Below, one piece after another: positions 10,978 through 63,903 of a stretch of 64,000 nt of DNA. Within the stretch, counting starts at the first letter, position 1. Each line of letters opens with the position of its first letter. This stretch comes from Branchiostoma floridae (Eukaryota; Chordata; Leptocardii; Amphioxiformes; Branchiostomatidae): assembly GCF_000003815.2 (NCBI RefSeq), contig NC_049984.1, positions 16,352,601 to 16,416,600 of the forward strand. The letters are read 5' to 3'. Made by a program: the position numbers and the translations under genes. Under the pieces are notes generated by a model. That model did not search any database and was not told where the DNA came from. It saw nothing but the letters and a program-made list of their open reading frames with translations.

Positions 10978-13900
10978 ATGGCTGACGACATAGACGACCT
11001 CCTGGACGAGGTGGAGACGAAGTTTCTTGAGAAGAAGGAGAAATCTGGAGGTGTCGCCAAGAAGGCGAAGACGCCGGTGTCTAAAACAAATCCGAATGTC
11101 CCATCCAGGTAAGAAGAAAGGGGGGTCGAGGCCAGTTAAATCTTTGACGCTTCCAAGAAAAGAAAAGGACACATTGAAAATATTTCAAGTGGTATTGACA
11201 AACACACAGAAAACTATTGTAGTTGAGCCGAGAATGCATTCTGTTTAATGGTTACTTTAAAAGAACACTGCCTTTTATTACAAGGTGGGAGGGGGGCGTC
11301 ACCCTGAAAACTGCAATGCATGCAACTTACAAAAGAAATTTAATTTCGTCCATAACCTAGTCCTAATAGATATCATAGTAATACTAACATTAGCATACTT
11401 TTGTTTCCTCTGCAATAACTACAGTATACGTACTAGAATTTCTAGGCTGACAATAGATCATAATTTTTCTAATAACAACTAACATTTATATTATAACGTT
11501 GCCTTCTTACTTTGGGACAATCCCACGTTTCTAAAATAGAATCCTTTGTCAAATCATTTGCAATGTGTGTTTTGAAGTTCACAACCTTAACTCTGGTCCT
11601 ATGTAACATCTACCAATAATCAGTAACATAAGCCAACACGTGATATTATGTCTTGTAAACTGGCCAAGGATCTAGTACTTCTAGTAACTCTTGCCTTGAC
11701 CTCTGACCTGTAACACCTGTTTATCTGGGTTGCCTAGCGAACGGGGCGTCGGCCAGGTGTTCAAGTCGTTTGAGTTGTGACTCTCTGTTTTCACAGCAAT
11801 CAGTGTTATCTGCATGATAAAAGCCATGTCACTGAAAGAGAATGGTATGACCAGTCGTTTGAGACTCGGTCAATTATGCTGATTGTCTTGAGGTAGAATT
11901 ATATCTGACATGCCCTTGGGGGTAAAGAATGGCCAGCTGTCTTCTCTACAATTCCTAGAGAAAATGTAATGAATGATTTAACAGGCGGGCACCCTTATCT
12001 GTAGCTATAAATAACGGGTTTGTCAGTGACAAAACAAGGTAATCGGATATACCAAGTGTAAATGAAGTGACGTCTACAAGCAGATGTTTGGGGTGGACAA
12101 TTGTTAACTTTTCTGATCAGCTGACTTTTCTGACAGTCCTATGTTGTGTGTAATACTATATATATGATTTTAAATTTTAGAAATAGTCCCGCACATTTTG
12201 ATTTAGAAGCCCTGTACAAAAAAAGATATCTAGAATGTCTGTTTATCGGATTCATTGGAAAGGCACAATAACATTGTCAGGGCTCGAAATTCATTTTTGG
12301 GATTAGGTGCACTGGTGCACCGAGCTTGAAAAATTGGGTGCACCAAAAATTTTTTGGGTGCACTACTTAAATTTAAGTAATAACCTAATAATAAAACTTA
12401 GTTACAAGCTATGAAATTCTTAAACAAGTACCATGACAGAAATTTTTTATTATCTTTCTAACACTAACACTGTCAAGAATATGATGTAGACTAGCATACT
12501 TTGATATCTTTACATACATATATATGGCCTCCTTCGGTCAATATTGACCATGGTTACATACATAAACGTAAGAAAAAAATTGGGTGCACAGCTCCAATTT
12601 TGGGTGCACCTGGGTGCACATGCACCCAGTATTTCGAGCCCTGATTGTACTTGAAAGAAAGTGATGTTCAAGAAAACCTGAAACATTGCATAACTCAATG
12701 GTTTGATACAATATAATGATATTTCCTTCAAAATCAATATTTTCCTTTCTGCATCAATTCTAGTATGTGATTTTCTGTTACAAAATTTTTTTGACATCAG
12801 TCATTCAGTGCAGCTATGTCTGTTGAAACAGCTATGGTGTAACTTTTGCATTTTTTGTTTTTAACTTGTAGGAAGAAGTCAACAGGTGACGCTGACCTAG
12901 ATGCCATGATAGATGACATCTGTGAAGCACCTGAACCTCTGGAACCATTAGTGGTAAGGGCACCTGTAGTCACCTGACACCACACTTAACACCTGTAGTT
13001 ACCTGATGCCACACCAAACATGCACCTGTAGTTAGAAAATGCCACACCAAACATGCACCTGTAGTTAGAAAATGCCACACCAAACACCTGATGTCACCTG
13101 ATGCCACACCAAACACCTGCAGTCACCTGATGCCACACCGAACACCTGCAGTCACCTGATGTCACACCAAACACCTGCTGTCACCTGATGCCACACCAGA
13201 CACCTGCAGTCAAATGACAGCACACTAAAAACCTGCTGCCACCTGACACCACACAAAACACCTGCAGTCACCTGAGGCCACTCCAGACACTTGTAGCCAC
13301 CTCACACTACAGTAAACACCTGCAGTCACCTTAATCCACACCTTAGACCATCAAAATTCTGACATAATGTTTTCATGTACTTACACCAGGAAAAGTTTTG
13401 TTATGTGTTTCTTCTCTCTTGAGAGCTATGTTCTATGACTAGTATGAGGCAAGCATATTCTCTATTCCATCTGTAGGACAAGGCACCAGCTCAGAACTCC
13501 CCCAGGACTCCAAGAGGAGCAGAAGGGAAAAGAAGGTGATTATTCAATACATGTCTTGTCTTCAATACTTTGTTTATTAGTGCTTGAAATACGTCATTTG
13601 CAGATTAGGGCAGGTGAAATTGCAGCTGTGGAGGTGTTTCCTAGGTCTACCTGTACTACTAGTCAATGTATACATGTTTAACTAGCACAGTCCAAATACA
13701 ATAACACGAGTATTTATGTTACTTGGCTAATACCTGTACATGTATAACATGGTTGCAATATGTCCAGGACGAAGCAAAGGTCTGCTGCAGTACCAAGGAT
13801 AGCCTCTAGGAACCTAAGACTCACCCACACCAAATATCACCATCCATATCCATAAACACACAAGGACACACAAACGGACATGCCAAAACAATATCTCCAT

Positions 13901-15608
13901 TTGTCGTGGAGGTAAGAACTTAACTCTTGTTATTTCCTGTGACAGATGTGCAGTGCTGTACCTAGGAGGAAGCAAGCATGCCATGGGCCTGGGCAGCAGT
14001 ATGAACCAAAGGTAATCTTTACACTAGCATTGAACAAAGAACTATATGAAAGGATGCATTTTTGTGTGTGTGTTCAAAGCTATTCCATTATTACCTGAAT
14101 GGAGGTTATGTTTATGATGCTGTTTGTGTGTGTCTGTTGGCCAACAAGATTGGCAGTATTGATCAGCTTTTGTGTGTTTGTATGTTATTGGCTTTCCTTA
14201 GTATTGCAGTGAAACTTCTGGTTTTGATATCAGGTTCTGGATAAGCTGTGGTTACAATTTTCAGGTGGAAGATAGCTCTTGTACACAAGAAGAAGTGGCG
14301 TTGGTTTGAGTCCCCTAGCAGCTTGTTCTATAAATGCAGGGGTTGTTTTTGCTCAAGAGGATTGCTTAAGGAGGGGTTGATGGATCATCATGTTTTTAGT
14401 ATGGAGGTAGCTTTACTTGTATGTTTATGGATATAAGATGCAGGGCTCGAAATACTTTTTTCCGCATACCTGCACTGGTGCAGGTAACATTGAGAATTAC
14501 CTGCACCAGACAAACTTTACCTGCACCACTCTGAATTTAGGAAGTATGGGTCATACTAAAATTGTTGAGGAACCATTGCTATGTTTTCTTTTATAACTAA
14601 TAGGTGGCAACAGTCAATGCAGCTAATAACAATCCACATACACCTACATCATAGGACATTTATGTTAAATCACAGTACATGGACCAGTGCAGGTTAGGTG
14701 CAGGTAGACACCAGAAATACCTGCACAGCTCCAATTTTACCTGCACTAACATGCATATGCAGGTGGTATTTCGAGTCCTGAGATGTATCGAACTAGAAAT
14801 CTCTGATACATGTTTCTAATTCTAATTGTCCATGATGTTTTTGTTCACTAGATCATGTGATCAGCTACGCTGTACGGACTGTGACTTTCGCGTCGTGTTT
14901 TATGACAACTATGAGTGGGATGCTTCGTGCGAGTACCTGTTCTTCAGAAATAACGTCCCTGATTTCGGTAAACTCAAGGCCAAACTTAACAAAAGAAAAG
15001 GTGAGAAATTTTGCTGAAATATTTCTGAAGTATTAATGTTGATTCTCCAAAATTTACAATATATATAAGATGTTGAAAGATTTTTTGTCATGATTATTAA
15101 ATTTTTATGAATACCATACAGGCAGAAAGAGTGGATACTTATTTCAAAACCCACTATTGAAAAGAAATCAGTAATTCTATGCATCTATTCTGTCTACTGC
15201 ATGTTGCTCACATGTATTCTGCAAAACTTCAGTCAATTGACTTATCCTGACTGCCAATCACAATTAACAGTTCAACCAATTGTAGCATGGCAATTAATGA
15301 TTCAACCAATGGGAGAAAGTCTGGATTTAATCCTTTTATTTTGTATTTAAAGTTTAGATAGGTTGGGGCTTTTTGATTGGTCTATACTTAAAAAGCCATA
15401 CTCATATCAACAGTATAGTCAAACATATGATGACATGTATTTTTGTGCTTAACACAGAGCGTCTGATAACATATTTTCTCTTATGTTTTATGTATCTACA
15501 GGAAGCAGGGCCTATGCTTGCCAGTGCAAGTGGACATCAGTGCAAGACCTTGTAGACATTCAGAAGAAAACAGACTTCAAATGGGTCTGTGGAAAACATG
15601 CCTCCTAG
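10978..15608 (+). CDS. CFAP418: CFAP418 (C8orf37) orthologue, cilia- and flagella-associated protein (6 exons)
   Basis: Exons 10978-11108, 12872-12953, 13477-13535, 13946-14011, 14852-15000 and 15502-15608 join in consistent phase to a 197-residue protein (human about 207, from memory). The N-terminus [16 protein letters not shown] and a second acidic [10 protein letters not shown] block match the two short conserved segments of the family. The C-terminal domain starts at VLYLGG and continues through a cysteine-rich [11 protein letters not shown], then [20 protein letters not shown], then YACQCKW, ending WVCGKHAS. In vertebrates this protein works at the ciliary base and in photoreceptor disc formation; human mutations cause retinal dystrophy and a Bardet-Biedl-type ciliopathy. 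The middle linker is short and basic. Introns carry two hAT-like MITEs and a minisatellite. All cysteines of the C-terminal domain appear to be kept, so the gene looks functional. Confidence 0.93.
12278..12643. mobile_element. hAT-like MITE, GGGTGCAC subterminal type
   Basis: A 366-bp element in CFAP418 intron 1. Its ends CAGGGCTCGAAAT and ATTTCGAGCCCTG are perfect inverses. It is flanked by a 5-bp direct repeat ATTGT on each side. Six copies of (G)GGTGCAC lie next to the two termini in both orientations, a typical layout for transposase-binding subterminal repeats. No coding capacity. Confidence 0.88.
12955..13345. repeat. 29-bp minisatellite, about 13 units, beginning at a splice donor
   Basis: Tandem units close to ACCTGCAGTCACCTGATGCC plus ACACCAAAC run from the second base of CFAP418 intron 2. 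The first three units are 32-33 bp or carry a variant (GTTAGAAAA for GTCACCTGA); the last three degenerate. Each unit holds one or two CACCTG E-box cores. Confidence 0.92.
14441..14780. mobile_element. hAT-like MITE, ACCTGCAC subterminal type
   Basis: A 340-bp element in CFAP418 intron 4 with ends CAGGGCTCGAAAT and ATTTCGAGTCCTG (one mismatch) and a 5-bp direct repeat AGATG on each side. Its sequence next to the ends aligns with the element at 12278, but the subterminal motif is ACCTGCAC instead of GGGTGCAC at every matching position. Non-coding. Confidence 0.88.

Positions 15609-45389: not shown

Positions 45390-63903
<18,514 letters not shown>

What the first reader, a model, noticed from the sequence alone, without database searches (positions are those of the whole stretch)
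12278..14780. Coordinated replacement of a subterminal motif at six matching sites in two related transposons
The elements at 12278-12643 and 14441-14780 share their termini (CAGGGCTCGAAAT) and internal segments such as ACAGCTCCAATTTT. Yet at each of about six aligned sites, in both orientations, one has GGGTGCAC and the other ACCTGCAC (for example GGTGCACTGGTGCACC against ACCTGCACTGGTGCAGGT near the left end, and GGGTGCACAGCTCC against ACCTGCACAGCTCC near the right). Only the outer three bases of the motif differ. Independent mutation would not change all copies in step, so this looks like concerted change of transposase-binding subterminal repeats when DNA-binding specificity shifted. hAT transposases are known to bind such subterminal repeats; the concerted shift is my inference.
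Basis: partly seen in the sequence, partly recalled or inferred. Interest (0 to 1): 0.75.

Follow-up and report, generated by a model that had tools for sequence, protein, structure and literature searches.

The report
Transposon families with swapped binding sites
Two small jumping genes that share the same tips and the same eight site positions carry different versions of one short motif at every site, and full-length relatives suggest that each version is read by its own variant of the jumping enzyme.

Summary
In the window, eight TGCA sites lie at identical offsets in both elements; outer triplets differ at 23 of 24 bases, cores at 0 of 32, spacers at 23 of 75. Genome-wide, left ends with two facing sites number 779 pure GG type and 480 pure ACC type, against 0 and 3 mixed. 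Further types share the tip: AC[T/A]TGCA in the same register, and ACATGCAA and GGGAC in a similar register on one end only. Duplications are 5 bp, so these are hAT5-like, not ordinary 8-bp hAT. I found transposases beside GGG-type (C1, C9), ACT-type (C172, 64% identical over 415 residues) and GGGAC-type ends (C19, 32%); each has a zf-C17orf113 finger match, below cut-off for C19. Between GGG and ACT transposases the finger is less conserved (25 of 53) than the following region (226 of 336; p=0.0055). Reading: subterminal arrays are finger-binding sites that changed as sets while the tip stayed. Binding is unproven, and for ACC only transposase relics without a finger were found, so the window's own GGG/ACC pair lacks the protein-side test.

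The parts
12278..12643 (+). E1: GGG-type non-autonomous element (MITE), 366 bp, 5-bp target duplication ATTGT
   Evidence: the GGG MITE consensus is 96% identical to the left 94 bp and 81% to the right 180 bp of the autonomous GGG element
14441..14780 (+). E2: ACC-type MITE, 340 bp, 5-bp target duplication AGATG, right tip with one mismatch
51577..51831 (+). E3: second ACC-type copy in the window, right tip decayed, about 255 bp
   Evidence: right border by eye
12305..12322 (.). E1 left facing pair of sites (AGGTGCAC, TG, GTGCACCG)
   Evidence: cores at 31 and 39 from the tip
12336..12343 (+). E1 left site 3, GGGTGCAC
   Evidence: core at 62
12356..12363 (+). E1 left site 4, GGGTGCAC
   Evidence: core at 82
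12582..12589 (+). E1 right site, GGGTGCAC (before AGCTCC)
   Evidence: core at 56 from the right tip
12602..12609 (+). E1 right site, GGGTGCAC
   Evidence: core at 36 from the right tip
12612..12627 (.). E1 right facing pair (GGGTGCA..TGCACCC)
   Evidence: cores at 26 and 20 from the right tip
14468..14485 (.). E2 left facing pair of sites (ACCTGCAC, TG, GTGCAGGT)
14499..14506 (+). E2 left site 3, ACCTGCAC
14519..14526 (+). E2 left site 4, ACCTGCAC
14719..14726 (+). E2 right site, ACCTGCAC (before AGCTCC)
14739..14746 (+). E2 right site, ACCTGCAC
14749..14764 (.). E2 right facing pair (ACATGCA..TGCAGGT); the first half is ACA where the family consensus has ACC

Best explanation
The two elements are deletion-derived passengers (MITEs) of two related hAT5-like transposon families. 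Each family has, or had, its own transposase. The transposase's N-terminal zinc finger (zf-C17orf113 type) probably binds an array of short subterminal sites held at fixed distances from the cleaved tip (cores at 31, 39, 62, 82 on one end and 20, 26, 36, 56 on the other), while another part of the protein recognises the shared tip CAGGGCTCGAAAT. When a family's finger changed its preference, all sites of that family came to carry the new outer triplet (GGG, ACC, AC[T/A]) while the TGCA core, the tip and the spacing stayed. In more distant families the core changed too (ACATGCAA, GGGAC), with the tip kept and the register similar on one end only. Shown: the shared tip, the register of the three TGCA types, the coherence within ends, the 5-bp duplications, and a transposase beside each of three motif types. 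Inferred: that the finger binds the sites, and that a shift in specificity drove the change of the array.
For: Consensus ends of GGG, ACC and ACT types align with no indel over 91 + 66 bp; GGG vs ACC triplets 23/24 different, cores 0/32, TIR 0/26, spacers 19/75. Coherence 492:5 within ends against 241 mean disagreements in shuffles. Genome-wide pure 779 and 480 against mixed 0 and 3; ACT pure 127. A complete GGG-type element at C1 (L064:21-3833, duplication ATATG) encodes a protein with zf-C17orf113 and Dimer_Tnp_hAT. A C172 transposase ends in ACT-type repeats, cores at 31, 39, 62, 81 and 89. A C19 transposase ends in GGGAC-type repeats like those of the GGGAC MITEs. A C13 relic ends in ACC-type sites with cores at 31, 39 and 82. 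Finger identity GGG vs ACT 25/53 against 226/336 for the following region, p=0.0055. Hermes, another hAT, binds a quasi-palindromic pair of subterminal repeats with its BED finger (PMC10368747, passages and section 7 read).
Against: No intact ACC transposase was found, so GGG/ACC has no protein comparison. DNA-binding fingers may diverge faster for other reasons. The C19 finger sequence was not seen and its Pfam match is below cut-off. The first exon was not compared. ACC vs ACT shows no excess of triplet over spacer change (8/24 vs 30/75, p=0.63); there the argument rests on all eight changes falling on the third base. In the far types the register is not kept on both ends: GGGAC left ends have TCCC/GGGA at 22, 30, 56, 77, 89 and the ACATGCAA right end has cores at 28, 35, 55, 78, 86. 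Interiors of GGG and ACC MITEs are unrelated. The finger shows no credible match to a solved structure.
Confidence: 0.75

Rival explanations
1. Array birth instead of concerted mutation: each family built a fresh subterminal array by duplicating one new site at helically spaced positions, and the old array was lost. The sites agree because they are recent copies of one another, not because they mutated together.
For: Sites within a type are near identical, and several lie about 10 or 20 bp apart. MITE interiors are unrelated between types.
Against: Spacers between the sites still align without indels and differ at only 19 of 75 positions between GGG and ACC consensus ends. Fresh arrays would not keep spacer similarity such as AAAATTGGAGCTGTGCA at the right end.
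Confidence: 0.15
2. Stepwise change through a permissive intermediate: a transposase that tolerates several triplets let single sites drift, and a later narrowing fixed one triplet everywhere. This is a route to the same end point as the best explanation, so its odds overlap with it.
For: The ACT type mixes ACA and ACT at its right end (consensus triplets ACA, ACT, ACA, ACT; 3 right ends). ACC, ACT and ACA differ by one base each.
Against: GGG to ACC needs all three bases to change, and mixed left ends are 0 and 3 genome-wide.
Confidence: 0.4
3. The motif changed to escape a host DNA-binding repressor rather than to follow the transposase.
For: Nothing found here; general possibility.
Against: Three motif types each lie beside a different transposase, two of which have clearly diverged fingers, and the TGCA types keep the register relative to the cleaved tip.
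Confidence: 0.05
4. The two families are unrelated at the motif level and merely share tips through recombination or convergence.
For: Interiors do not align.
Against: Ends align colinearly over 157 bp; transposases of the GGG and ACT types are 63-64% identical.
Confidence: 0.05

Closest known systems
hAT5 group of hAT transposons (5-bp target duplications; Kapitonov and Jurka 2007, seen only as cited in PMC12730594, passages read)
   Same: 5-bp duplications and hAT dimerisation domain
   Different: Added here: families with a common tip and, for three types, a common register but different subterminal motifs. Placement in the hAT5 clade was not tested by a tree.
Hermes (hAT) left end with subterminal repeats bound by BED fingers (PMC10368747, passages and section 7 read)
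   Same: Several short sites inward of the tip, the first two facing each other as a quasi-palindrome; zinc finger ahead of the catalytic region
   Different: Hermes motif is AAGT/AAGC, mostly not aligned between its ends; here octamers at fixed offsets; the finger is zf-C17orf113 with other ligand spacing
Kat1 and Tgf2 hAT transposases with end or subterminal repeat requirements or finger binding (PMC4763223, PMC4890040; starts of abstracts in search listings only)
   Same: Finger or subterminal repeats contribute to activity
   Different: Single systems; no families with swapped motifs in what I saw

Membership tests
hAT superfamily | C-terminal hAT dimerisation domain in the partner transposase | tested here: met
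   PF05699 in P0001, 39.5 bits vs cut-off 21.4; PF05699 also hits C172 and C9 over the cut-off
hAT superfamily | 8-bp target site duplication (the usual state; 5- and 6-bp groups are described) | tested here: not met
   Duplications are 5 bp: exact in 23 of 30 GGG, 7 of 16 ACC, 1 of 1 ACW and 2 of 5 other complete MITEs
hAT5 group | 5-bp target site duplication | tested here: met
hAT5 group | Transposase falls in the hAT5 clade | not tested
hAT superfamily | Intact DDE catalytic residues | not tested
   Not mapped
   Finger matches PF25431 zf-C17orf113 in P0001 and P0002; no BED model listed up to E = 1
MITE of the GGG-type autonomous element | Ends shared with an autonomous copy, interior deleted | tested here: met
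   GGG MITE consensus vs L064 element: 96% over left 94 bp, 81% over right 180 bp
MITE of an ACC-type autonomous element | Ends shared with an autonomous copy | tested here: inconclusive
   Only a relic with in-frame stops beside an ACC-type end at C13; a second relic at C19:2754856 has a truncated end (by eye)
Transposase-binding subterminal repeats | Direct binding by the transposase | not testable with these tools
   Needs a binding assay

The most novel reading that the evidence does not exclude
A natural series of transposon families in which the DNA-binding finger and the whole array of its sites were rewritten several times while the cleaved tip stayed put (and, among the TGCA types, the spacing of the sites too), which keeps each family's passengers separate. 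Counting back from the first histidine after the CxxC, the GGG and ACT fingers share Asn at -4 and Arg at -7 (candidates for reading the constant TGCA core) and differ at -1, -2 and -5 (Lys, Arg, Lys against Ser, Thr, Pro; candidates for reading the variable triplet).
Probability: 0.4. Interest if true: 0.75.

Novelty: new variant of a known kind. Interest (0 to 1): 0.62.

Why it matters
How a transposase can change its binding specificity when it must be matched by many sites at once is, to my knowledge, an open question, and related families are usually too distant to compare. Here families with the same tip and the same site register, two of them with transposases 64% identical over 415 residues, sit in one genome with over a thousand ends. 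That gives a direct way to derive a recognition code for this finger class, and to test whether escape from non-autonomous passengers drives new specificities.

Tried and rejected
Ordinary 8-bp hAT was rejected on the 5-bp duplications. Independent variation of sites was rejected. An unrelated origin of the ends was rejected. Other hAT hits were looked at for the shared tip: the stretches fetched at C2, C3, C17, C1:14303030 and C1:2246400 gave only scattered matches with three or four mismatches, and those at C8 and C13:21780886 none within three; only about 1.1 kb beyond the domain was seen (about 0.3 kb for C8 and C13). ACC finger: the expected places beside the C13 and C19 relics held no recognisable finger. 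C5:5154224 lies beside a GGG-type end in the opposite orientation to the autonomous element (by eye) and was left open. Tails of two C6 relics showed no tip (L075 none, L076 a three-mismatch match). Solved structures: no match for the transposase, two chance-level matches for the finger. Papers: none of four tip strings occurs in the main texts of the held library; no paper held all five terms on coevolution of transposase and subterminal repeats. Sampling: L001-L040 came from an exact CAGGGCTCGAAATT search and favour the GGG type; L041-L060 were picked by me for ACC, ACT and odd ends. 20 of 123 ends had fewer than two readable template sites and were dropped. The shuffles ignore common descent.
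Full report
What is there. E1 (12278-12643) and E2 (14441-14780) are complete short elements with 13-bp tips and 5-bp flanking duplications, ATTGT and AGATG. Cores TGCA lie at 31, 39, 62 and 82 from the left tip and at 20, 26, 36 and 56 from the right tip in both. The outer triplets differ at 23 of 24 bases, the cores at 0 of 32, the spacers at 23 of 75, the tips at 1 of 26. A third copy, ACC type, is at 51577-51831. The site classes were defined after looking and sites in one element are not independent, so the Fisher value (7e-9) is a description, not a blind test.

Genome scale. The window lies in a 513-Mb genome with 431 contigs. The exact 14-base tip CAGGGCTCGAAATT occurs 641 + 606 times, the reversed control 0 and 1. 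Tip plus two facing TGCAC sites occurs 843 + 803 times, control 0 and 0. Of the first 100 listed, the first triplet is AGG in 53, ACC in 29, ACT in 13, GGG in 2, and TGG, AAG, AGA once each. Left ends with both facing sites of one type: GG/GG 779, ACC/ACC 480, ACT/ACT 127. Mixed ACC then GG: 0. Mixed GG then ACC: 3, with matched lengths 37, 48 and 53; one of them is L056. Of the 100 listed pure ACC matches 93 are 44 to 46 long, the rest 38, 47 (twice), 51, 53, 58 and 64. ACC/ACT mixing was asked but not answered. In 103 of 123 sampled ends with at least two readable sites, site pairs agree 492 times and disagree 5 times for GGG against ACN (1000 shuffles: mean 241, least 202). For ACC against AC[T/A] the figures are 183 and 16 (shuffles: mean 84, least 65). 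These counts show that mosaic elements are virtually absent; since copies of a family share descent, they do not count independent events.

Families. Consensus ends of the GGG, ACC and ACT types align without indels over 91 and 66 bp (34, 11 and 7 left ends, 22, 12 and 3 right ends). GGG vs ACC: triplets 23/24, cores 0/32, tips 0/26, spacers 19/75. GGG vs ACT: 23/24, 0/32, 0/26, 33/75. ACC vs ACT: 8/24, 0/32, 0/26, 30/75; read from the triplets printed, all eight ACC/ACT changes are at the third base. A fourth type, ACATGCAA (L006:836-1206), has cores at 39, 62 and 82 on its left end, the first site being degenerate, but at 28, 35, 55, 78 and 86 on its right end. A fifth, GGGAC (L018, L037, L040), has TCCC at 32, 43-44, 65-66 and 86-87 on the right end of each of these three MITEs, and at 32, 42, 64 and 85 on the end beside the C19 transposase; its left ends differ (22, 30, 55-56, 77, 89). 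Its right tip is CAGGCCTCGAAAT, and CAGGCCTCAAACT beside C19. Among 52 complete MITEs the 5-bp duplications are exact in 23 of 30 GGG, 7 of 16 ACC, 1 of 1 ACW and 2 of 5 other. Median K2P to consensus is 0.059 (GGG) and 0.060 (ACC), so I see no age difference; interiors of GGG and ACC are unrelated.

Transposases. C1:12810110-12814100 (L064) holds a complete GGG-type element, 3813 bp, duplication ATATG. Its large exon (P0001) matches zf-C17orf113 (residues 33-90) and Dimer_Tnp_hAT; a near-identical copy is on C9. The C172 transposase is 64% identical over residues 7-421 and 59% over 423-712, and ends in ACT-type repeats (cores at 31, 39, 62, 81, 89); its far end was not fetched and its frame spans an N run. 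The C19 transposase (32% identical over 37-443, finger match 26.4 bits, under the 29.5 cut-off) ends in GGGAC-type repeats like those of the GGGAC MITEs; its finger sequence was not fetched. For ACC a relic with in-frame stops on C13 ends in ACC-type sites with cores at 31, 39 and 82, and a similar relic with a truncated end lies on C19. Between GGG and ACT transposases, 25 of 53 finger residues are identical against 226 of 336 after the finger (p=0.0055); in the 19 residues up to the second histidine 8 are identical (p=0.04), a stretch chosen after looking.

How it most likely works. In Hermes the finger's third helix, just before the first histidine ligand, enters the major groove, and base contacts come from Q64, S66, N67 and R70 and two main-chain groups. 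By the same count, GGG and ACT fingers keep Asn at -4 and Arg at -7 and differ at -1, -2 and -5. This mapping is inference: ligand spacing differs and no solved relative was found. I read the arrays as docking sites for fingers of a multimeric transposase, in register with the cut. Constraint on the tip, and on the register among the TGCA types, explains what stayed; a change of finger preference explains why all sites changed. Whether sites drifted one by one under a permissive finger (the mixed ACA/ACT right end of the ACT type hints at this) or a new array displaced the old one is open.

Comparison. By 5-bp duplications and the hAT domain the elements fit the hAT5 group (cited in PMC12730594, passages); a tree was not made. 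The finger is not BED by Pfam. I know of no report of families with a shared tip and register and swapped motifs, but the searches behind that are few, mostly seen as listings, and the library is open-access only.

Noticed in passing
window 12961-13374: An array of 29-bp units (CACCTGCAGTCACCTGATGCCACACCAAA-like), about a dozen copies, lies between E1 and E2.
   Followed up: no
window 51880-52070: Beside the third ACC-type copy an open stretch reads like C2H2 zinc fingers (by eye, no family search).
   Followed up: no
C6 (28 Mb) of the same genome: hAT transposase matches are crowded on C6: 11 of 33 PF05699 matches and 11 of 31 P0001 matches, on about 5.5% of the genome; several contain stop codons.
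   Followed up: no
L006:836-1206: Element with the same tip but ACATGCAA sites, one copy seen complete with an exact 5-bp duplication.
   Followed up: partly
L018:56-584, L037:65-769, L040:5327-5939, L082: GGGAC-type family with left tip CAGGGCTCGAAATTAAC and right tip CAGGCCTCGAAATTAAC; the end beside the C19 transposase resembles it.
   Followed up: partly
C11:14953183-14953347: The best zf-C17orf113 match of the genome (65.5 bits) beside a weak match to the C-terminal part of P0001, possibly a host gene derived from such a transposase.
   Followed up: no
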